Shown here piece after piece: positions 20,964-58,462 of a stretch of 64,000 nt of DNA (positions within the stretch are counted from its first letter, which is position 1; each line of letters opens with the position of its first letter). Under the pieces are notes generated by a model. It did not search any database and had not been told where the DNA came from. It saw nothing but the letters and a program-made list of their open reading frames with translations. The position numbers were made by a program, and so were the translations under genes. The stretch covers positions 139,142 to 203,141 of the forward strand of contig NZ_QBKG01000003.1 of assembly GCF_003054025.1 (NCBI RefSeq), given 5' to 3'. Source of the stretch: Capnocytophaga leadbetteri. Its GTDB lineage: Bacteria > Bacteroidota > Bacteroidia > Flavobacteriales > Flavobacteriaceae.

Positions 20964-21411
20964 ACTGTTTTTCTGTTATTGTCCCTTTTATTATAGCAAA
21001 TTATTTGCCATAGTGTAAAAACTGACAAAATGACAGGGTTATTATTGAGAAATGGGAGGTTTTAGAGGGCTGAGAAGGCTGGGAAATAGGATTTTTTTCT
21101 GGTTTTGAGATGATAAGGAGACGTTTATACTTTGTTCATCTTTCGCTTATCGTTCGCTCTTCCTAAAGGGTAGCTATATCTAAAGTAAAGGGTAGGACTA
21201 TAAGTAGGTTTTTTTTATAAAATTAGCAAATGGGAAGAATGGGAGGCTTGGGAGGGCTAGGAAGGCTGGGAAGATTGGGAAAGCTGGGAAGAATGGGAAG
21301 GCTGAGAGGATTGGGGGGCTAGGAAAACTGGGAAAGTTGGGAGGGCTGGGAGGTTTGGGAAATTGGGGGATTATTATTATCTTTGCGGCATAATTTTGTA
21401 TTATAGGAAGT
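20964..21411. repeat. Repeat-rich spacer between grpE and hsdR
   Basis: No gene is supported here. The spacer holds a short 9-mer array (21054-21089, units such as GGGAGGTTT), one copy of a 70-bp composite element (21123-21192), a few octamer units near 21222, and a long array of about 16 units of a 9-base G-rich repeat such as GGGAAGGCT (21232-21372). The hsdR promoter box follows at 21378. Confidence 0.8.
21378..21386 (+). promoter_or_regulatory. -7 promoter element of hsdRMS
   Basis: TATCTTTGC lies 25 bases before the hsdR ATG and 5 bases after the end of the G-rich 9-mer array, so the array occupies the upstream promoter region. Confidence 0.65.
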
Positions 21412-23799
21412 ATGGGCGATTTTCTAAATATGTCGGAAGAAGATATAAAACTCAAATTCATAACTCCCAGCATAATGGATAAAGGATGGGGTTATGATAA
21501 TATTTCTATGGAAAAAATGGTTAAATTTACCGATGGTAAGATTAACCTTCGAGGCAATCTTTTCTCTCGTAGTAAAGCAAAATATGCCGATTATATGCTT
21601 TACTATAATAAGGCTACCCCTATTGCTATTGTAGAAGCTAAAGATGCTACTCACTCTATAAGCTACGGAATGCAACAAGCAAAAGAATATGCTATGATGA
21701 TGAATATCCCTTTTGCTTATAGTTCTAACGGACAAGGTTTTCAGGAATATGATTTCCTTACAGGAAAAGAAAGAACTCTCGCGATGGATGAATTCCCTAC
21801 TAAAGAGGAGCTTTACAAACGTTTTACGGGTGAAAATCATAATGGAGAAGGATTATCGGAAAAAGAACTTAAAGTCATCAATCAACCGTTTTGTGTAGGT
21901 CAGGACATCTTCCCTCCTCGATACTACCAGCGCAATGCGGTTAATAATACGGTAAATGCCGTCGCTCAAGGCAAAAAACGACTTTTATTAGTAATGGCTA
22001 CTGGTACTGGCAAAACTTATACGGCTTTCCAAATTGTTTACCGACTATTGAAAGCAGGATTGGTAAAGAAAGTATTGTATTTAGCTGACCGCAATGTATT
22101 AGTAGACCAATCTATTCAGCAGGATTTTAAACCTCTTCAGAAAACTATACACAAGGTTGATTATCAGAAAGATTTAAACAGCGGCATCACAGCGTATGAG
22201 GTTTATTTTTCACTTTACCAACAACTTATAGGACAAGGAGGAAAACAGCAGTACAAAGAGCTGTTCAGACCTGATTTTTTTGATTTGGTAATTGTAGATG
22301 AGTGTCACAGAGGAAGTGCCAAAGACGACAGCAACTGGCGTGAAATTTTAGAATATTTTGATAGCGCAATACAGTTAGGGATGACCGCAACTCCTAAAGA
22401 AACTAAATACCAATCCAGCATCAATTACTTTGGCGAGCCTGTTTATACCTATAGCTTAAAGCAGGGCATTGAAGACGGATTTTTAGCTCCTTTTAGAGTT
22501 GTAAATATCACCACTAACATTGGTGATGAGTGGAGACCTACTGTGGGGCAAGTAGATGTTTATGGCAATGAAATAGAAGATCGTATTTATAATAATTCGG
22601 ACTACGACTATAAGATTATTATAGAAGACCGCATTAGGGAAGTAGCTGAACAAATTACTCATTACCTCAAGCATACTGACCGAATGGGAAAAACAATTGT
22701 TTTTTGTGCCGATGAAGATCACGCTGAGAGAATGCGCATAGCCCTTGTAAATGCCAATTCGGATATGTGTCAAAAAAATCCTGATTATGTAGTGCGCATT
22801 ACGGGAAGCGACCCTTATGGACAATCAAAACTAGATTATTTTATTTCGGTAGCTGAAAAATATCCTGTTATTGCCACTACCAGTAAGCTTTTATCTACAG
22901 GAGTGGACTGTAAAATGGTGAAGCTGATAGTGCTTGACCAGCGTATCAGCTCTATGACTGAATTTAAGCAGATTGTAGGGCGTGGCACTCGTATTCGTGA
23001 AAAAGAGGGGAAAACGCACTTTACTATAATGGATTTTCGGAATGTTACCCGCCTATTTGCTGACCCTGATTGGGATGGTGAAGCAGAGATAGACCCTAAC
23101 TATCCGCCTGATGACACGGTGATTCCTCCTGCTGAGCCCTGCCCTGTATGTGGGCAATTCCCTTGTGTATGTCCGTGTCCTATTTGTGGGCATTATCCTT
23201 GTGAATGTAAGGTTACAAATAAATCGCCTAAACCTATTGTAGATAAAAACGGTTGTTCTGTGACAGTGATTAACAAAGTTGTATCGGTGTATGATACGAA
23301 TGGCAAACTTTTGCGAACTGAGAGTGTTACCGATTATACTAAGAAGAATATCAACGACAATTATACAAACCTTGATGACTTTATCCTGCATTGGAATAAA
23401 GCAGAAAAAAAAGCTGAGATAACTGATTTGCTGCGCGAAAGCGGTATTGATTTGCAAGCCCTAAAAGAAGACCAAGGAATGGCTGAGGTAGATGATTTTG
23501 ATTTTATCTGCCATATAGCTTACGGCAAAAAGCCTCTTACACGCAAAGAACGTGCTGAAAATGTAAAAAAACGAGATGTTTTTAACAAGTATGGTGCTGA
23601 AGCCCGAAAAGTATTGGAGGCTCTGCTTGAAAAATATGCTACTGATGGTATCACACAATTAGAAAACACCACAGTTCTGAAACTTGACCCTTTCCGACAA
23701 ATGGGAGCTCCTGCCCATATAGCCAAATTCTTTGGAGGTAAAGAACAGTATTTTTTGGCGGTGAAAGAATTAGAAAAATTGATATATAACATAGCTTAA
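21412..23799 (+). CDS. hsdR: Type I restriction enzyme, R (motor/nuclease) subunit
   Basis: HsdR translocates DNA and cleaves it when the target is unmethylated. The 795-residue protein has an N-terminal nuclease domain (YADYML near 58, VEAKDA at 74-79), Walker A MATGTGKT (195-202), DECH box (296-299), later helicase motifs (STGVDCKMV, QIVGRGTRIREKEG) and a C-terminal domain. A Cys cluster at 577-599 is a tandem CPxCGxxPCxC repeat (eight Cys), which looks like an inserted zinc knuckle. An in-frame ATG at 21430 (MSEEDIK) is an alternative start. hsdM follows by 3 bases. Confidence 0.94.
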   Translation: MGDFLNMSEEDIKLKFITPSIMDKGWGYDNISMEKMVKFTDGKINLRGNLFSRSKAKYADYMLYYNKATPIAIVEAKDATHSISYGMQQAKEYAMMMNIPFAYSSNGQGFQEYDFLTGKERTLAMDEFPTKEELYKRFTGENHNGEGLSEKELKVINQPFCVGQDIFPPRYYQRNAVNNTVNAVAQGKKRLLLVMATGTGKTYTAFQIVYRLLKAGLVKKVLYLADRNVLVDQSIQQDFKPLQKTIHKVDYQKDLNSGITAYEVYFSLYQQLIGQGGKQQYKELFRPDFFDLVIVDECHRGSAKDDSNWREILEYFDSAIQLGMTATPKETKYQSSINYFGEPVYTYSLKQGIEDGFLAPFRVVNITTNIGDEWRPTVGQVDVYGNEIEDRIYNNSDYDYKIIIEDRIREVAEQITHYLKHTDRMGKTIVFCADEDHAERMRIALVNANSDMCQKNPDYVVRITGSDPYGQSKLDYFISVAEKYPVIATTSKLLSTGVDCKMVKLIVLDQRISSMTEFKQIVGRGTRIREKEGKTHFTIMDFRNVTRLFADPDWDGEAEIDPNYPPDDTVIPPAEPCPVCGQFPCVCPCPICGHYPCECKVTNKSPKPIVDKNGCSVTVINKVVSVYDTNGKLLRTESVTDYTKKNINDNYTNLDDFILHWNKAEKKAEITDLLRESGIDLQALKEDQGMAEVDDFDFICHIAYGKKPLTRKERAENVKKRDVFNKYGAEARKVLEALLEKYATDGITQLENTTVLKLDPFRQMGAPAHIAKFFGGKEQYFLAVKELEKLIYNIA

Positions 23800-23802
23800 T
23801 AT

Positions 23803-25302
23803 ATGGCACTTAACAACTTTGTAAAAAGCATTCGGAATATTATGCGCAACGATGCGGGTATCAATGGTGATGCCCAACGCATTGAGCAAATTGCGTGGAT
23901 GCTTTTCCTTAAAATATACGATGTAAAAGAGGAGGATTGGGAATTTAATGAGGATAGTTATCAATCGTTTATTCCTAAAAAATGTCGTTGGCGTTCGTGG
24001 GCAACAGACAAGGGTGATGGCAATGCCCTAACCGCTGACGCCTTGTTGGATTTTGTAAACAATACTCTCTTCCCTACCCTAAAAAGTTTGGAAGTTACCC
24101 CTGATACTCCTATACGCAGTAGCATTGTATTTACGACATTCCAAGATGCTAACCAATATATGAAAGATGGTGTATTACTTCGCCAAGTGGTGAATGTAAT
24201 AGACCAGCTGAATTTTTCCGATTATGAAGAGAACCACGCTTTTGGAGAAATTTATGAAGCAATCTTGAAGGAAATGCAGTCAGCAGGTTCAGCGGGTGAG
24301 TTTTATACCCCAAGGGCACTTACGGATTTTATGGCAGAAATTATAGAGCCCCAAATAGGAGAAAAGATGGCTGATTTTGCCTGCGGGACAGGAGGCTTCA
24401 TCACAAGTTGGCTAAACACTCTTGATAAAAAAGTTACCACGGCAGAGGCTAAAGAAGCTTGGGCTCAATCTATCTATGGAATAGAGAAAAAGCAATTCCC
24501 CTATATGCTTTGTGTAACTAATTTGTTACTACATAATATTGATGCCCCTGCGGTAGTACACGACAATTCACTTACAAAAGATGTACTTAACTATACCGAT
24601 GACGACAAGTTTGATGTGGTGCTGATGAATCCGCCTTATGGGGGTAGTGAAAAGAACGATATCAAACAGCATTTTCCGTCAGACCTTTCTTCCAGCGAAA
24701 CTGCTGACTTATTTATGGTACTGATAATGTATCGCTTAAAACAAAATGGACGTGCTGCGGTGATTCTTCCTGATGGGTTTCTCTTTGGTGCTGACAATGC
24801 TAAATTGGCTATAAAAGAAAGGCTTTTGAGAAAGTTCAACTTACACACTATTATCCGCTTGCCAGGTAGTGTATTTTCTCCTTACACAAGTATTGCTACT
24901 AATATCTTGTTTTTTGACAATGTGCAAGCAGAAGGAGCTGAAGAAGGTTTTTGCACCCATAAAACGTGGTTTTACCGCTTGGATATGCCCGAAGGGTATA
25001 AGCATTTTTCAAAAACCAAACCTATGCAAGCTGTACATTGTCAGCCTATTAAAGACTGGTGGCACAACCGTGTAGAAATTGTTAGCGAAGATGGTAAAGA
25101 TGAGAAGTCGAGAGTATTTACCGCGCAAGAGCTCTTAGCGATGGATTGCAACCTCGACCAATGTAAATTCCCCAAAGATGAGGAGGAAATACTACCCCCA
25201 GCAGAGCTTTTGGACAACTACTACAAAAGACGTGCTGCCCTTGAGCACGAAATAGACAAAACTCTTTCGGAAATACAACAGATTTTAGGAATAGAAAGAT
25301 GA
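23803..25302 (+). CDS. hsdM: Type I restriction-modification methyltransferase, M subunit
   Basis: HsdM transfers a methyl group from SAM to N6 of adenine in the site chosen by HsdS. The 499-residue protein has an N-terminal helical domain, SAM-binding motif I DFACGTGGF (191-199) and catalytic motif IV NPPYGG (276-281), then a C-terminal region (FPKDEEEILPPAELL) that contacts HsdS. It lies in the hsdRMS operon and overlaps hsdS by 4 bases (ATGA). It must be shared by every HsdS variant made by the invertible locus downstream. Confidence 0.95.
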   Translation: MALNNFVKSIRNIMRNDAGINGDAQRIEQIAWMLFLKIYDVKEEDWEFNEDSYQSFIPKKCRWRSWATDKGDGNALTADALLDFVNNTLFPTLKSLEVTPDTPIRSSIVFTTFQDANQYMKDGVLLRQVVNVIDQLNFSDYEENHAFGEIYEAILKEMQSAGSAGEFYTPRALTDFMAEIIEPQIGEKMADFACGTGGFITSWLNTLDKKVTTAEAKEAWAQSIYGIEKKQFPYMLCVTNLLLHNIDAPAVVHDNSLTKDVLNYTDDDKFDVVLMNPPYGGSEKNDIKQHFPSDLSSSETADLFMVLIMYRLKQNGRAAVILPDGFLFGADNAKLAIKERLLRKFNLHTIIRLPGSVFSPYTSIATNILFFDNVQAEGAEEGFCTHKTWFYRLDMPEGYKHFSKTKPMQAVHCQPIKDWWHNRVEIVSEDGKDEKSRVFTAQELLAMDCNLDQCKFPKDEEEILPPAELLDNYYKRRAALEHEIDKTLSEIQQILGIER

Positions 25303-26795
25303 CAGCAGACCAATTACGCAAATCTATACTTCAGCAAGCTATACAGGGCAAACTTGTGCCACAAGACCCTAATGATGAGCCTACCTCTGTACTTCTTGAA
25401 CGCATTCGGGAAGAGAAAGCTCGGCTTGTGGAAGAAAAGAAAATCAAGAAGGAAAAGAACCCTTCTGTTATTTTTAGAGGAGAGGATAATTCCTATTATG
25501 AGAAGTTAGGGGAGAAAATTATTGAAATAGAAAGTGATTACAACTTTCCAAATAGTTGGTCTGTAGTTAGATTATCATTTATTTGCATTCTCACTGACGG
25601 AGAGAAAAAAGAAGGACAGAATATATGTCTTGATGCTAAGTTTTTACGAGGAAAAACAGAAGGTAATTACTTAAAAAATGGGAGATTCATAACGAAAGGA
25701 GATAATATAATTTTGGTGGACGGAGAAAACTCTGGAGAGGTTTTTACAGTTCCATGCGATGGTTATATGGGAAGTACATTTAAAAAACTATGGGTAAGTT
25801 CTGTAATGAATTTACAATATGTACTTTACTTTATACAGTTCTATAAAGACCTACTTCGTAATTCAAAAAAAGGAGCTGCTATACCACATCTTAATAAGGA
25901 ATTATTTTATTCACTTTTTATAGGTCTCCCTCCTTTAAAAGAGCAACAGCGTATTGTAGAAAAAATAGAGGAACTTATCCCTCATATTGAACATTATAGC
26001 AAAGCACAAGCAGAACTTGATTTGCTTAACAGAAACATTAAAGAACAGTTAAAAAAGTCTGTTCTGCAATATGCGATAGAGGGGAAACTTGTACCACAAG
26101 ATGAAACAGAAGGCACGGCTGAAGAACTATTACTGCAAATACAGAAAGAGAAGCAAAAACTATATGAAGAAAATAAGCTAAAGAAAAAAGACCTTGAACA
26201 CAGCATTATTTTTAAAGGTGAGGATAACAAGTACTATGAGAAGATAGGGAAAAATGTTACCTGTATAGATGAGGAAATACCTTTTGAAATACCTAATGGG
26301 TGGGTGTGGGCAAGAATGGGGCAGATAGGAGATTGGGGAGCTGGGTCAACTCCTTCTCGTAGTAATCCTAATTATTACAATGGCAAAATATTATGGTTAA
26401 AAACAGGAGAATTAAATAATGGAATTGTTTTTGATACCGAAGAAAAAATTACAGAAAAAGCTTTTCAAGAATGCTCTTTACGTATAAATAAAGTAGGTAA
26501 TGTACTTATAGCAATGTATGGAGCTACAATTGGTAAATTAGCAATAGCAGGCAAAGAACTCACTACTAATCAAGCTTGTTGTGGATGTTCTCCCTATCTA
26601 ATAAATAATTGGTATCTTTTTTATTTTTTAATGGCAAGTAGAGAACAATTCATAAAGAGAGGAGAAGGAGGTGCTCAACCAAATATATCTCGCGTTAAAT
26701 TAGTCGAACATCTAATTCCTCTTCCACCCCTATCTGAACAGCAAAGAATAGTAAATACCATTCAAAATATTTTTCGTTGTATAGAAAAGAATTAG
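25299..26795 (+). CDS. hsdS: Type I restriction specificity subunit (expressed copy)
   Basis: HsdS recognises the bipartite target. The 498-residue protein has a fixed N-terminal part (1-64, up to the first repeat), target domain 1 (about 65-215, ending PPLKEQQRIV), a conserved central spacer (about 216-325, EELIPHIEHYSKAQ through KNVTCIDEE) and target domain 2 (about 330-480, ending PPLSEQQRIV). Three inverted repeats shared with the opposite-facing copy mark the edges: 25490-25507, 26219-26269 and the central 26768-26816. It is translationally coupled to hsdM and is the only copy with a start in the operon. Confidence 0.93.
   Translation: MTADQLRKSILQQAIQGKLVPQDPNDEPTSVLLERIREEKARLVEEKKIKKEKNPSVIFRGEDNSYYEKLGEKIIEIESDYNFPNSWSVVRLSFICILTDGEKKEGQNICLDAKFLRGKTEGNYLKNGRFITKGDNIILVDGENSGEVFTVPCDGYMGSTFKKLWVSSVMNLQYVLYFIQFYKDLLRNSKKGAAIPHLNKELFYSLFIGLPPLKEQQRIVEKIEELIPHIEHYSKAQAELDLLNRNIKEQLKKSVLQYAIEGKLVPQDETEGTAEELLLQIQKEKQKLYEENKLKKKDLEHSIIFKGEDNKYYEKIGKNVTCIDEEIPFEIPNGWVWARMGQIGDWGAGSTPSRSNPNYYNGKILWLKTGELNNGIVFDTEEKITEKAFQECSLRINKVGNVLIAMYGATIGKLAIAGKELTTNQACCGCSPYLINNWYLFYFLMASREQFIKRGEGGAQPNISRVKLVEHLIPLPPLSEQQRIVNTIQNIFRCIEKN
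25490..25507 (+). repeat. Outer inverted repeat IR1, left arm
   Basis: The 18-base sequence TTCCTATTATGAGAAGTT is repeated exactly in reverse complement at 28140-28157. It lies at the boundary between the fixed 5' part of hsdS and target domain 1, where an inversion would exchange both target domains. Confidence 0.8.
26219..26269 (+). repeat. Inner inverted repeat IR2, left arm
   Basis: These 51 bases in the central conserved region of hsdS match the reverse complement of 27315-27365 exactly. They form the core of a longer similar stretch (about 25950-26300 against 27290-27640). Recombination here would exchange only target domain 2. Confidence 0.85.
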
Positions 26796-26816
26796 TTTTC
26801 TATACAACGAAAAATA
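26768..26816. repeat. Central 21-bp perfect inverted repeat at the hsdS/hsdS' junction
   Basis: Arms 26768-26788 and 26796-26816 are exact reverse complements around a 7-base loop that holds both stop codons. It is the symmetry centre of the inverted pair and may also act as a terminator hairpin for both directions. Confidence 0.85.
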
Positions 26817-27997
26817 GCATCAATAGATTCTACAATACGTTGTTGTTCAGCAAGTGGAGGAAGAGGAAATAATAATCGTTCCCAATTTCCCTTATTTATA
26901 ATTGGAGTAGCGGTTCCTGTTGATTTTTCAATCATAGCAAGAAAAAAAGTATTAGAAAGTAAATAGTAATATAGAAATTTGGGTTCACATAAAATAGGAG
27001 TAATAGAGTTGATTTGTTGATTGAAAGTTACAGATTTATTAACAATAGCACATTTACCTATTGAGCCTCCTATACATACTTGGAGAATAGAATTACAGGG
27101 AACTACTCTACCATACAACATTCCTTCCTTAGATAACCATTGATTTTCATTAACAATCCTATTTTGTTGTATATTAGCTGGACTTAGAAAAGGAATATGA
27201 TCACCAAAAAAATTAGGATTACTTTTTGGAGGAGTTGTACCTGTTTCTGTAAGTCCCAAATCTCTTACTCTACACCACCTCCAATTTTTAGGTATTTCAA
27301 AAGATATTTCCTCGTCTATACAGGTAACATTTTTCCCTATCTTCTCATAGTACTTGTTATCCTCATCTTTAAAGATAGTGCTGTGTTCTAGGTCTTTCTT
27401 CTTTAGCTTATTTTCTTCATATAGTTTTTGCTTTTCTTTCTGTATTTGTTCTAATAATACCTCAGCCGTGCCTTCTGTTTCATCTTGAGGTACAAGTTTC
27501 CCTTCAATAGCGTATTGCAGAACAGACTTTTTTAGCTGTTCTTTAATGTTTCTGTTGAGCAAATCAAGTTCTGTTTGTGCTTTGCTATAGTGCTCAATAT
27601 GAGGGATAAGTTTCTCTATTTTTTCTACAATACGTTGCTGTTCAGCAAGTGGGGGAAGAGGAACGCGTGTTGTATGTAGAGTTTGAGATGAAAAACCTTG
27701 TATGCCTATTCCTTTACCCCCAATTAATCCAGAAAGATTATATAAATAAAAAATATAGTAAAAGTATCGTGTACATAAAGGAAGATATGCACGAAGTTTA
27801 TGTATGTGATTTTGAAGCATTATGGGTTCATCGTTTTCCCAAATACAAGAACGTCCTATATCTCCTCCTTCACAAACCAACAAATCTCCTTTAATTGCTT
27901 GACAACGCTCAATCTCTTTAATCTCAAAAGGCATTTTTTTGAGATTGTTGAGTATAAAACCATTCCAATAAAGATTAGAAGTTGTAATATAACTCAT
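26792..27997 (-). CDS. hsdS: Silent inverted hsdS' cassette (type I specificity subunit)
   Basis: This copy faces hsdS, and their stops overlap by 4 bases. From the internal ATG at 27997 it encodes 401 residues: part of a first target domain, a central spacer nearly identical to that of hsdS (IEHYSKAQTELDLLNRNIKE and so on), and a second target domain ending PPLAEQQRIV. The frame stays open upstream with hsdS-like sequence (CIDEEIPFEIPNGW) as far as IR1 at 28157, and stops just beyond it. It thus lacks the fixed N-terminus, a proper start and a promoter. It is best read as a storage copy that donates target domains to hsdS by inversion. Confidence 0.88.
   Translation of the reverse strand: MSYITTSNLYWNGFILNNLKKMPFEIKEIERCQAIKGDLLVCEGGDIGRSCIWENDEPIMLQNHIHKLRAYLPLCTRYFYYIFYLYNLSGLIGGKGIGIQGFSSQTLHTTRVPLPPLAEQQRIVEKIEKLIPHIEHYSKAQTELDLLNRNIKEQLKKSVLQYAIEGKLVPQDETEGTAEVLLEQIQKEKQKLYEENKLKKKDLEHSTIFKDEDNKYYEKIGKNVTCIDEEISFEIPKNWRWCRVRDLGLTETGTTPPKSNPNFFGDHIPFLSPANIQQNRIVNENQWLSKEGMLYGRVVPCNSILQVCIGGSIGKCAIVNKSVTFNQQINSITPILCEPKFLYYYLLSNTFFLAMIEKSTGTATPIINKGNWERLLFPLPPLAEQQRIVESIDAIFRCIEN
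27315..27365 (-). repeat. Inner inverted repeat IR2, right arm
   Basis: Exact 51-base reverse complement of 26219-26269, in the central spacer of the silent hsdS' copy. Confidence 0.85.
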
Positions 27998-28139
27998 TAA
28001 CTCCCCTGAAGAATTACTTCTGTTTAACTGTTTCCCATTGTTGTGATTAAATAGATTTCCAATAATACACCACTCCCACCCGTTAGGTATCTCAAAAGGT
28101 ATTTCCTCATCAATACATTTTACCTCGCCTGATAGGGTG

Positions 28140-28157
28140 AACTTCTCATAATAGGAA
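28140..28157 (-). repeat. Outer inverted repeat IR1, right arm
   Basis: Exact 18-base reverse complement of 25490-25507. Similarity to hsdS ends here, so it marks the outer edge of the silent cassette. Confidence 0.8.
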
Positions 28158-28222
28158 ACTTAGGAAATATTATCTGCTGTTTCTTATATTGTACCCATTA
28201 ATATATAAAAAAACAAAACGAT

Positions 28223-29026
28223 ATGGTTACAAACTTTGAAACTGCTCTGAAAGAGCGCAATATGGCAGAAAATACTATTACTGCTTATCTGTATGCTGTA
28301 AATGATTTTTATAGTAAATATTCCGTCTTGAATAAACGGCATTTGTTACTTTACAAAACTTACCTGATAGAGCATTTTAAACCTAAAACGGTGAACTTGC
28401 GCATTCAGGCTCTTAATAAATTCCTGGAACATATCGGTAAGCCTAAACTTCGACTTAAATCGGTAAAAGTACAACAACGCACTTATTTGGAAAACGTGAT
28501 TAGTCAGGCGGATTACCTTTTCTTGAAAGAGCAGCTGCGACAGGAAGAGAACCCTATGTGGTACTTCGTGGTGCGCTTTTTGGCTGCTACTGGTGCAAGA
28601 GTTAGCGAGCTTATCCAAATAAAAGCTGAACACGTGCAGATTGGTTATTTTGACCTTTATACTAAGGGTGGCAAAGTGAGGCGGCTGTTTATTCCTGAAC
28701 AACTGCGCAATGAGGCTACAGAATGGCTCAAAGCACAAGAGAAAACATCGGGCTATCTTTTCGTTAACCGCTTAGGAGAACGTATCACTACGCGTGGCAT
28801 TGCTCAAAAACTTAAGTTTTTTGCTGAGAAATATGGTATGAATACTCAAGTGGTCTATCCGCATTCATTTAGGCATAGATATGCTAAGAATTTCTTGGAG
28901 GCTTTTAATGATATTTCGCTTCTGGCTGACCTTATGGGGCACGAGAGTATTGAGACTACTCGTATCTATTTGCGTAGAACGGCTTCGGAGCAGCAAGCTA
29001 TAGTAGATAAAATTATCACTTGGTAA
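28223..29026 (+). CDS. Tyrosine recombinase, likely hsdS invertase
   Basis: The 267-residue phage-integrase-family protein has an N-terminal SAM-like DNA-binding domain (1-85) and a catalytic domain with the complete active site: R126 (TGARVSE), K149, H214 and R217 (PHSFRHR), H240 (LMGHESIETT) and nucleophile Y249. It begins 66 bases beyond the outer inverted repeat of the hsdS pair. Comparable recombinases next to inverted hsdS genes invert them and switch methylation specificity. It is too short to carry an extra arm-binding domain and has no phage neighbours, which favours a local role. Confidence 0.88.
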   Translation: MVTNFETALKERNMAENTITAYLYAVNDFYSKYSVLNKRHLLLYKTYLIEHFKPKTVNLRIQALNKFLEHIGKPKLRLKSVKVQQRTYLENVISQADYLFLKEQLRQEENPMWYFVVRFLAATGARVSELIQIKAEHVQIGYFDLYTKGGKVRRLFIPEQLRNEATEWLKAQEKTSGYLFVNRLGERITTRGIAQKLKFFAEKYGMNTQVVYPHSFRHRYAKNFLEAFNDISLLADLMGHESIETTRIYLRRTASEQQAIVDKIITW

Positions 29027-58148: not shown

Positions 58149-58462
58149 TGATAATTAGCAAACTTTATTGATTTGGCAATTTGCCGATTTGTCAATTTGC
58201 CAATGAACACATAACGCTCAAATCTCCCAGAGCTCCATTAATTAGATTTTTTTTCTTCTATACTTTCCCTTTACTTTAGATATACCTACCCTTTAGCTTG
58301 AGCGAAGGATTATCGAAAGAGGAGCAAAGAATAAACAACTAATCATCACGCAAAAAGCAGCAAAACATTCTACACTCCATCTCGCTTGCTTTTTTCCTCC
58401 TCCATTAATCATCTCATTGGCAAATTGGCAAATTGACAAATCGGCAAATTAACCAATCAATA
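58149..58462. repeat. Repeat-rich spacer between the LRR gene and the PpiD-like gene
   Basis: No gene is supported. Octamer arrays occupy about 58149-58205 (units GGCAATTT, GCCGATTT, GTCAATTT) and 58417-58462 (units GGCAAATT, GACAAATC). A 70-bp composite element lies at 58267-58336, containing three 11-mers (58302-58334). It matches the reverse complement of 21123-21192 at about 60 of 70 positions by eye. Confidence 0.8.

What the first reader, a model, noticed from the sequence alone, without database searches (positions are those of the whole stretch)
25490..29026. Invertible type I restriction specificity locus with two exchange points
Seen: expressed hsdS and an inverted start-less hsdS' share an 18-bp exact outer inverted repeat (25490-25507/28140-28157), a 51-bp exact inner repeat (26219-26269/27315-27365) and a 21-bp central palindrome. 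A tyrosine recombinase with a full active site lies 66 bp outside. Recombination at the outer or inner repeats would give four combinations of two first and two second target domains. Known: similar hsdS inversion systems change global methylation and gene expression. Inference: this population is a mix of methylation types.
Basis: partly seen in the sequence, partly recalled or inferred. Interest (0 to 1): 0.7.

Follow-up and report, generated by a model that had tools for sequence, protein, structure and literature searches.

The report
Four-way invertible methylation-specificity switch
A bacterium of the genus Capnocytophaga carries what looks like a DNA-flipping switch that can rebuild the target-choosing part of a restriction enzyme in four ways; such switches are known from other bacteria, and this is a well-formed new example rather than a new kind.

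Summary
An EcoAI-type type I R-M operon (hsdR, hsdM, hsdS) is followed tail-to-tail by an open but start-less hsdS' and a tyrosine recombinase with a complete active site. An 18-bp outer and a 51-bp inner exact inverted repeat lie before the first and between the two recognition domains. In-silico inversion gives four intact HsdS proteins (498, 497, 518, 519 aa). This is the published four-allele "inverting" type I layout, known in oral Bacteroidota; two searches with the genus name found no Capnocytophaga case. Switching is not shown for this genome, so "a mix of methylation types" stays inference. Indirect support: the C. periodontitidis assembly stops at both outer-repeat edges, and a related invertible type IIG-like locus lies in opposite orientation in two relatives. 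New detail: the sites fit arm, 6-bp spacer, arm, with different outer and inner spacers (TTCCTA, CAAGTA), which could keep the two exchanges apart. Close recombinases sit beside type I in some species and type IIG-like enzymes in others, and recombinase and cargo histories disagree. The same genome holds a second invertible-looking hsdS with a serine recombinase, so up to 4 x 2 states. New member of a known kind.

The parts
21412..23799 (+). hsdR, EcoAI/FtnUII-type type I restriction subunit (795 aa)
   Evidence: NCBIfam NF046051 1092.8 bits, cut-off 550; Pfam ResIII, EcoEI_R_C, HSDR_N
23803..25302 (+). hsdM, N6-adenine methyltransferase subunit (499 aa)
   Evidence: Pfam N6_Mtase 1.1e-64, HsdM_N
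25299..26795 (+). hsdS, the copy in the presumably translated position (498 aa, two recognition domains); ATGA overlap with hsdM
   Evidence: Pfam Methylase_S, 2 stretches; overlap
26792..28156 (-). hsdS', open but start-less inverted copy (454 aa from the outer repeat) with two other recognition domains
   Evidence: open frame; Methylase_S, 2 stretches
25490..25507 (+). outer inverted repeat, copy in hsdS: proposed 6-bp spacer TTCCTA plus arm TTATGAGAAGTT
   Evidence: exact, maximal; site model
28140..28157 (-). outer inverted repeat, copy at the 5' edge of hsdS'
   Evidence: exact, maximal
26219..26269 (+). inner inverted repeat, copy in hsdS (between the recognition domains); proposed spacer CAAGTA
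   Evidence: exact, maximal; site model
27315..27365 (-). inner inverted repeat, copy in hsdS'
   Evidence: exact, maximal
26768..26816 (.). central palindrome, 21-bp arms around a 7-nt loop, formed by the two convergent hsdS 3' ends; possibly a two-way terminator (inference)
   Evidence: arms, and RNA hairpin at -23.1 kcal/mol, no shuffle control
28223..29026 (+). tyrosine recombinase (267 aa), outside the invertible part; R126, K148, H214, R217, H240, Y249 fit the catalytic set
   Evidence: Pfam Phage_integrase 1.5e-24; residues; alignment to XerC-like 4a8e; roles of the residues recalled from XerD

Best explanation
A four-way inverting type I R-M locus. The tyrosine recombinase pairs either the two outer sites or the two inner sites and inverts the DNA between them. 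Outer inversion (25490-28157) puts both recognition domains of hsdS' into the translated gene; inner inversion (26219-27365) exchanges only the second domain; both together exchange only the first. Only the copy fused to the hsdM-coupled start is translated, so a cell makes one of four HsdS subunits and one of four methylation and restriction specificities. I propose that each site is a recombinase arm, a 6-bp spacer and a second arm, and that the different spacers of outer (TTCCTA) and inner (CAAGTA) sites hinder outer-inner exchange, which would leave a one-domain half HsdS (251 aa in silico). Shown: anatomy, intact products, a site motif shared with related loci. Inferred: activity, recombinase dependence, the spacer rule, the effect on methylation.
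For: Exact repeats at the right places. Four intact products of 498, 497, 518, 519 aa, and an open silent frame (434-456 aa) in each state. Complete recombinase active site. A profile built from 11 sites of 7 loci outside the window's subgroup ranks the two outer sites 1 and 2 and the two inner sites 8 and 9 among 127,950 window positions. In the whole own genome the pattern GATAA-N6-YTATGAGAAG occurs without mismatch 3 times, all here. In 7 of 7 loci where both site classes were found, the spacer is identical within a class and differs between classes at 1 to 5 of 6 bases. C. periodontitidis: one contig ends at the equivalent of 25489 and another begins at 28158, the two outer-repeat edges. 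In the related type IIG-like loci a 2.3-kb block is inverted between C. bilenii and G013, so that the active C-terminal half of one equals the silent half of the other (96.7% over 951 bp).
Against: No read, PCR or methylome evidence for this genome; its assembly shows one orientation. The C. periodontitidis breaks could have another cause, and its invertible segment was not found in the assembly (where 40 of 69 candidate places were scored). In the type IIG-like pair the other two halves do not match (37% protein identity, DNA alike only in the first 37 and about the last 136 bp), so the loci differ by more than an inversion. Sites were anchored by eye on repeats already chosen as exact, so spacer identity within a class is partly by construction; the window, P. 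crevioricanis and G980 loci are one subgroup; in L036 the spacers differ at one base only. Hits of the profile partly reflect shared hsdS coding sequence. Pneumococcal and S. suis hsdS inversions have been reported without a known or locus-encoded recombinase (PMC6620402 abstract; PMC6265453 passages).
Confidence: 0.85

Rival explanations
1. The inversions, at least at the inner repeat, are made by general homologous recombination in the 436-nt, 86% repeat; the recombinase matters only for the 18-bp outer repeat.
For: A long imperfect repeat exists; S. suis hsdS genes switch without a locus-associated recombinase (PMC6265453 passages); [quoted passage not shown]
Against: The longest exact run of the 436-nt repeat (51 bp) sits on a copy of the recombinase motif, 0.13% of random placements; the 18-bp outer repeat is short for general recombination (recalled); in pneumococcus IR2 and IR3 inversions rely on IR1-like sequences and fall strongly without PsrA (PMC7096588 passages).
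Confidence: 0.2
2. The locus is a locked relic: the structure is intact but the recombinase no longer acts, so the strain has one fixed specificity.
For: The own assembly holds one orientation across the locus.
Against: All frames, repeats and catalytic residues are intact; signs of rearrangement in close relatives.
Confidence: 0.09
3. The recombinase is the integrase of a mobile element and only by chance lies beside a duplicated hsdS.
For: The block from hsdR to recombinase has sharp edges and sits at different places in different species.
Against: Of the 15 relatives examined with 60% identity or more (11 at 65% or more, 4 at 60-63%), 14 lie on the same stretch as an R-M specificity gene, in S. 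buccae one cut by a gap; for the fifteenth, C. periodontitidis, the recombinase starts a contig and adjacency is inferred. In the 12 loci, the window included, where a repeat pair could be read, it carries a copy of the same motif. More distant relatives (34% identity or less) were not examined for context.
Confidence: 0.03

Closest known systems
Four-allele inverting type I R-M systems (scheme of Atack et al. 2020, PMC7394358; S. suis, PMC6265453)
   Same: Tail-to-tail hsdS pair; repeats before the 5' recognition domain and between the two domains; four alleles; a recombinase at some of the loci (passages).
   Different: The S. suis case is described without a locus-associated recombinase; the window has one. 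Capnocytophaga has 0 occurrences in the main text of PMC7394358; its supplements were not read.
Pneumococcal cod/SpnIII locus with PsrA (PMC7096588, abstract and passages; PMC4190663, search listing only)
   Same: Tyrosine recombinase at the locus; a short 15-bp repeat plus longer repeats that carry copies of its sequence; the target includes the repeat and the sequence just upstream.
   Different: Pneumococcus has three hsdS genes and six states; the window has two and four. Sequence relation of the recombinases was not tested here.
Phase-variable type I systems of P. gingivalis and P. intermedia (Haigh et al. 2017, PMC5690328, part 1 of 2 read)
   Same: Oral Bacteroidota with type I loci called phase-variable from sequence.
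   Different: Other families (recalled); no site or recombinase analysis in the part read.
Porphyromonas crevioricanis ATCC 55563 locus (L033)
   Same: HsdR 81%, HsdM 85%, recombinase 81% identical; outer and inner sites of the same type.
   Different: Carries a third, half-length S cassette.

Membership tests
Inverting (phase-variable) type I R-M system | hsdR, hsdM and hsdS of one type I system side by side | tested here: met
Inverting (phase-variable) type I R-M system | second, distinct hsdS in inverted orientation without a start codon at its 5' edge | tested here: met
   that it is silent was not tested
Inverting (phase-variable) type I R-M system | inverted repeats before the 5' TRD and between the TRDs | tested here: met
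Inverting (phase-variable) type I R-M system | every inversion product is an intact HsdS frame | tested here: met
   4 of 4
Inverting (phase-variable) type I R-M system | more than one orientation present in a population | not testable with these tools
   no reads; only indirect signs in relatives
Inverting (phase-variable) type I R-M system | methylation specificity changes with orientation | not testable with these tools
   needs methylomes
EcoAI-type HsdR (NCBIfam NF046051) | score above the curated cut-off | tested here: met
   1092.8 bits, cut-off 550
Tyrosine recombinase | catalytic domain and R-K-H-R-H-Y set | tested here: met
   PF00589 1.5e-24; residues
XerC / XerD / archaeal XerA recombinases | score above the curated NCBIfam cut-offs | tested here: not met
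   XerA 135.2 of 220, XerC 95.7 of 335.15, XerD 87.5 of 329.6 bits

The most novel reading that the evidence does not exclude
One recombinase lineage works as a portable switching engine for unrelated restriction enzymes. It recognises arm-spacer-arm sites; the 6-bp spacers act as an address code, one for each exchange point, so a single enzyme can shuffle several domain slots without mixing them. The R-M cargo next to the recombinase has been replaced at or near the outer site: type I (window, C. periodontitidis) and type IIG-like (C. bilenii, G013) cargoes sit beside recombinases whose tree pairs the window with C. bilenii and C. periodontitidis with G013.
Probability: 0.33. Interest if true: 0.62.

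Novelty: new member of a known kind. Interest (0 to 1): 0.42.

Why it matters
It adds an invertible, four-state type I system in Capnocytophaga; two literature searches with the genus name found no such report in the held library. If active, one strain would carry several methylomes, which would affect phage resistance, DNA uptake and perhaps gene expression, and would confuse methylome typing and genetic work. The spacer idea gives a short, testable rule for how one recombinase keeps two exchange points apart, and close recombinases beside both type I and type IIG-like enzymes suggest that switching engines move between enzyme types.

Tried and rejected
A fused HsdS-recombinase in Segatella buccae (932-aa frame) was an artefact of a run of N in the assembly. 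A test whether a profile from 17 type I sites finds the type IIG-like repeat was weak: the active copy ranked 4 of 14,152 positions in both loci; the silent copy was not in the top 8 in L035, and in L046 only an overlapping reading on the other strand was; the top hit in both was a sequence just upstream of the gene. The reverse test, a profile from two IIG-like sites on the window, ranked the outer hsdS site 23, the inner sites 384 and 385 and the hsdS' outer site 916 of 127,950. So the motif link between the two enzyme types is suggestive only. The profile run on the second hsdS locus of the own genome (L051) did not put its 42-bp repeat among the top 8.

A clean empty site for the module could not be shown: grpE-dnaJ, the nitroreductase and the mannose-6-phosphate isomerase gene (named by Pfam) are differently placed in G001, G010 and G013. 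The cargo boundary in the IIG-like pair is sharp on the recombinase side but lies about 700 bp before the site on the other side; in the C. periodontitidis pair it is only bracketed between 25489 and 28158. No repeat of 13 bp or more was found in the fetched stretches of G653 and G795, which are cut by contig ends; S. buccae and C. periodontitidis are gapped or broken, so sites come from 12 of 16 loci.

Surveys for the recombinase: close relatives (61% identity or more) in 8 of 20 genomes of the genus, own included; at E 1e-50 or better in 1 of 299 of the family sample (own only), 2 of 395 of the phylum sample (own and G653), 5 of 393 of the order of G653. Milman et al. 2023 on programmed inversions, the most relevant survey I recall, is not held, so an earlier listing of these loci cannot be excluded. 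Structure prediction, fold search and viral-contig scans were not run.
Full report
What is there. The window is G000:C3:139142-203141 of a 2.64-Mb genome in 40 contigs. Two other members of its genus in the search have contigs of the same length and place as records named Capnocytophaga bilenii (G001) and C. periodontitidis (G010), so I call it Capnocytophaga sp. The genes are hsdR 21412-23799, hsdM 23803-25302, hsdS 25299-26795 on the + strand; hsdS' is open on the - strand from the outer repeat to the stop at 26792-26794; the recombinase is 28223-29026 +. HsdR is EcoAI-type, 1092.8 bits against a cut-off of 550. hsdM and hsdS overlap by ATGA, so hsdS is probably translated by coupling, and hsdS', which has no start codon at its 5' edge, is probably silent; it does have an internal ATG at 27997.

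Repeats. The outer repeat (18 bp) and inner repeat (51 bp) are exact and cannot be extended. Of the 94 exact 18-mer inverted matches within 5 kb in the window, 84 lie here. The inner repeat is the longest exact run in a 436-nt repeat with 61 mismatches; random placement of mismatches gives so long a run in 1.7% of trials, and one covering the proposed site in 0.13%. The central palindrome has 21-bp arms and folds at -23.1 kcal/mol as RNA; it is made by the two convergent gene ends and may be a two-way terminator (inference).

Products. Inverting at the inner, outer, or both repeats gives HsdS proteins of 497, 518 and 519 aa besides the 498 aa present, all in frame, and leaves an open start-less frame of 434-456 aa in each state. 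An exchange between the outer site of hsdS and the inner site of hsdS' would give a 251-aa, one-domain HsdS.

Recombinase. It belongs to Phage_integrase (PF00589) and falls below the NCBIfam XerC, XerD and XerA cut-offs. R126, K148, H214, R217, H240 and Y249 fit the catalytic set; positions are, the alignment to 4a8e, and the roles of the residues are recalled from XerD (K151 is a second candidate lysine).

Sites. Read in the coding direction, the sites can be written as left arm, 6-bp spacer, right arm: GAGGATAA-TTCCTA-TTATGAGAAGTT (outer) and GAGGATAA-CAAGTA-CTATGAGAAGAT (inner). The 18-bp outer repeat is then exactly spacer plus right arm; the left arm at hsdS' differs. In pneumococcus, PsrA likewise depends on a 15-bp repeat plus its immediately upstream sequence, and on IR1-like sequences in the other repeats (PMC7096588, passages). 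In 7 of 7 loci with both site classes, spacers agree within a class and differ between classes at 4 (window), 5 (P. crevioricanis), 4 (G980), 1 (L036), 3 (G008), 4 (G983) and 4 (G986) positions. I take this as a likely address code that keeps outer and inner exchanges apart. Limits: anchors were set by eye, repeats were chosen as exact, and the first, second and third loci are one subgroup; five further loci (G002, G007, G012, and the two IIG-like) gave one site class only. Against strict separation, recognition domains do change position over evolution: residues 4-227 of the window HsdS align with residues 274-498 of the G980 HsdS at 62% identity. In the own genome GATAA-N6-YTATGAGAAG has 3 matches without mismatch, all in this locus, and 3 with one mismatch elsewhere; with two mismatches allowed the total is 28, against 21 for the control pattern read backwards.

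Signs of activity in relatives. C. periodontitidis has the same system (96.7% DNA identity over 4092 bp, 21400-25489). Its contig C12 ends at the equivalent of 25489, one base before the outer repeat, and C23 starts at 28158, one base after the other copy; the segment between was not found (2 matches only, both at these ends, 40 of 69 candidates scored; no Methylase_S match near them). In Segatella buccae a gap of N begins right after GAGGAC, which in the P. crevioricanis homologue lies two bases before the spacer. Contigs of G653 and G795 begin at the recombinase or inside an S frame beside it. So 4 of 16 recombinase loci are broken there. A population with both orientations would do this, but assembly breaks have other causes too.

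A second kind of cargo. In C. bilenii (L035) and G013 (L046) the recombinase (93% and 90% identical) lies beside no hsdS but a protein of about 1,300 aa with ResIII helicase and Eco57I methylase domains, best PADLOC match REase_MTase_IIG (L035 protein), and an inverted, start-less alternative C-terminal part of 343 or 320 aa. The 26-bp repeat encodes IDTIIGNPP and so runs into the NPPY methylase motif. Between the two species a 2276-bp block is inverted (96.7% identical), so that the active end of C. bilenii equals the silent end of G013 (96.7% over 951 bp). The other two ends are not the same: 37% protein identity, with DNA alike only in the first 37 and a 136-bp stretch near the end. G013 has no Methylase_S match in the whole genome.

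Cargo and recombinase histories. The recombinase tree joins the window with C. bilenii (84/81, not starred) and C. periodontitidis with G013 (97/97, starred); the IIG label needs two changes and starred branches force two, which is also what shuffled labels give (mean 1.9). DNA identity says the same: near the cargo end, 94.7-99.3% between window and C. periodontitidis in 150-bp steps but 73-85% in the recombinase; for the IIG-like pair 95-98% across the inverted block but 73-90% in the recombinase. Window and C. bilenii also share the nitroreductase gene behind the recombinase (90% over 1660 bp). Cargo exchange beside a resident recombinase is the simplest reading; ordinary homologous recombination after gene transfer could also do it.

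A second switch in the same genome. On G000:C7 (L051) a 732-aa methylase, a 530-aa HsdS, an inverted 201-aa half S and a serine recombinase (Resolvase, PF00239) lie together; the two S frames share a 42-bp inverted repeat, and inversion gives a 478-aa HsdS. With the window locus the strain could have 4 x 2 specificity states (inference).

What is known. The four-allele scheme with repeats before the 5' domain and between the domains is in PMC7394358 (abstract and passages). Phase-variable type I loci were reported in P. intermedia and P. gingivalis (PMC5690328, part 1 of 2), four alleles are expressed in S. suis (PMC6265453, passages), and signs of inversion in type I systems were seen in 13 species (PMC5903667, section 13, with 0 occurrences of Capnocytophaga). 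Searches with Capnocytophaga gave 0 papers and 1 (on CRISPR in B. fragilis, listing only). Searches for inverting type IIG enzymes held 62 papers with 20 listed, 8 with 8 listed and 73 with 20 listed; none showed one in its title or the start of its abstract, and most were not opened.

Verdict. Observation confirmed; a new member of a known kind, with a neat site logic and a portable recombinase as the parts worth following. On checking I lowered the main confidence from 0.86 to 0.85 and the novel case from 0.35 to 0.33, because the IIG-like pair differs by more than an inversion.

Noticed in passing
L051:6927-9784 (G000:C7): Second invertible-looking hsdS in the same genome: 530-aa HsdS, inverted 201-aa half S, 42-bp repeat 7584-7625/8918-8959, with a serine recombinase.
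   Followed up: partly
L035:3842-10801 and L046:7370-14344: Invertible type IIG-like helicase-methylase whose C-terminal part can switch at its NPPY motif, beside a recombinase 90-93% identical to the window's; a DUF1016/YhcG nuclease gene lies within the invertible part; the shared cassette is active in one species and silent in the other.
   Followed up: partly
L035:3825-3850 and L046:7410-7435: A further site-like sequence just upstream of the type IIG-like gene, top hit of the site profile in both loci (13-bp repeat match in L035).
   Followed up: no
window:28128-28157 (minus) and L035:9919-9950 (minus): Similarity of hsdS' and the type IIG-like gene runs past the site (shared CACCCTATCAGG, read in different frames); chance or a trace of past exchange.
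   Followed up: no
L033:7987-8568 and L065:5260-5841: P. crevioricanis and G980 carry a third, half-length S cassette with a CAAGTA inner site, which may allow more than four states.
   Followed up: no
window:21400-29025: The hsdR-to-recombinase block has sharp edges and other neighbours in C. periodontitidis and P. crevioricanis; 81-85% protein identity to the latter, of another order (recalled), suggests transfer as a unit.
   Followed up: partly
window:58178-58204 and 58424-58450: Exact 27-bp inverted repeat around 219 bp between two divergent genes (58111 minus, 58566 plus); could be an invertible promoter or a common intergenic repeat.
   Followed up: no
window:29829-29885: A short intergenic stretch behind the nitroreductase gene has many scattered matches in G001, G010 and G013, so it is probably a genus-wide dispersed repeat.
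   Followed up: no
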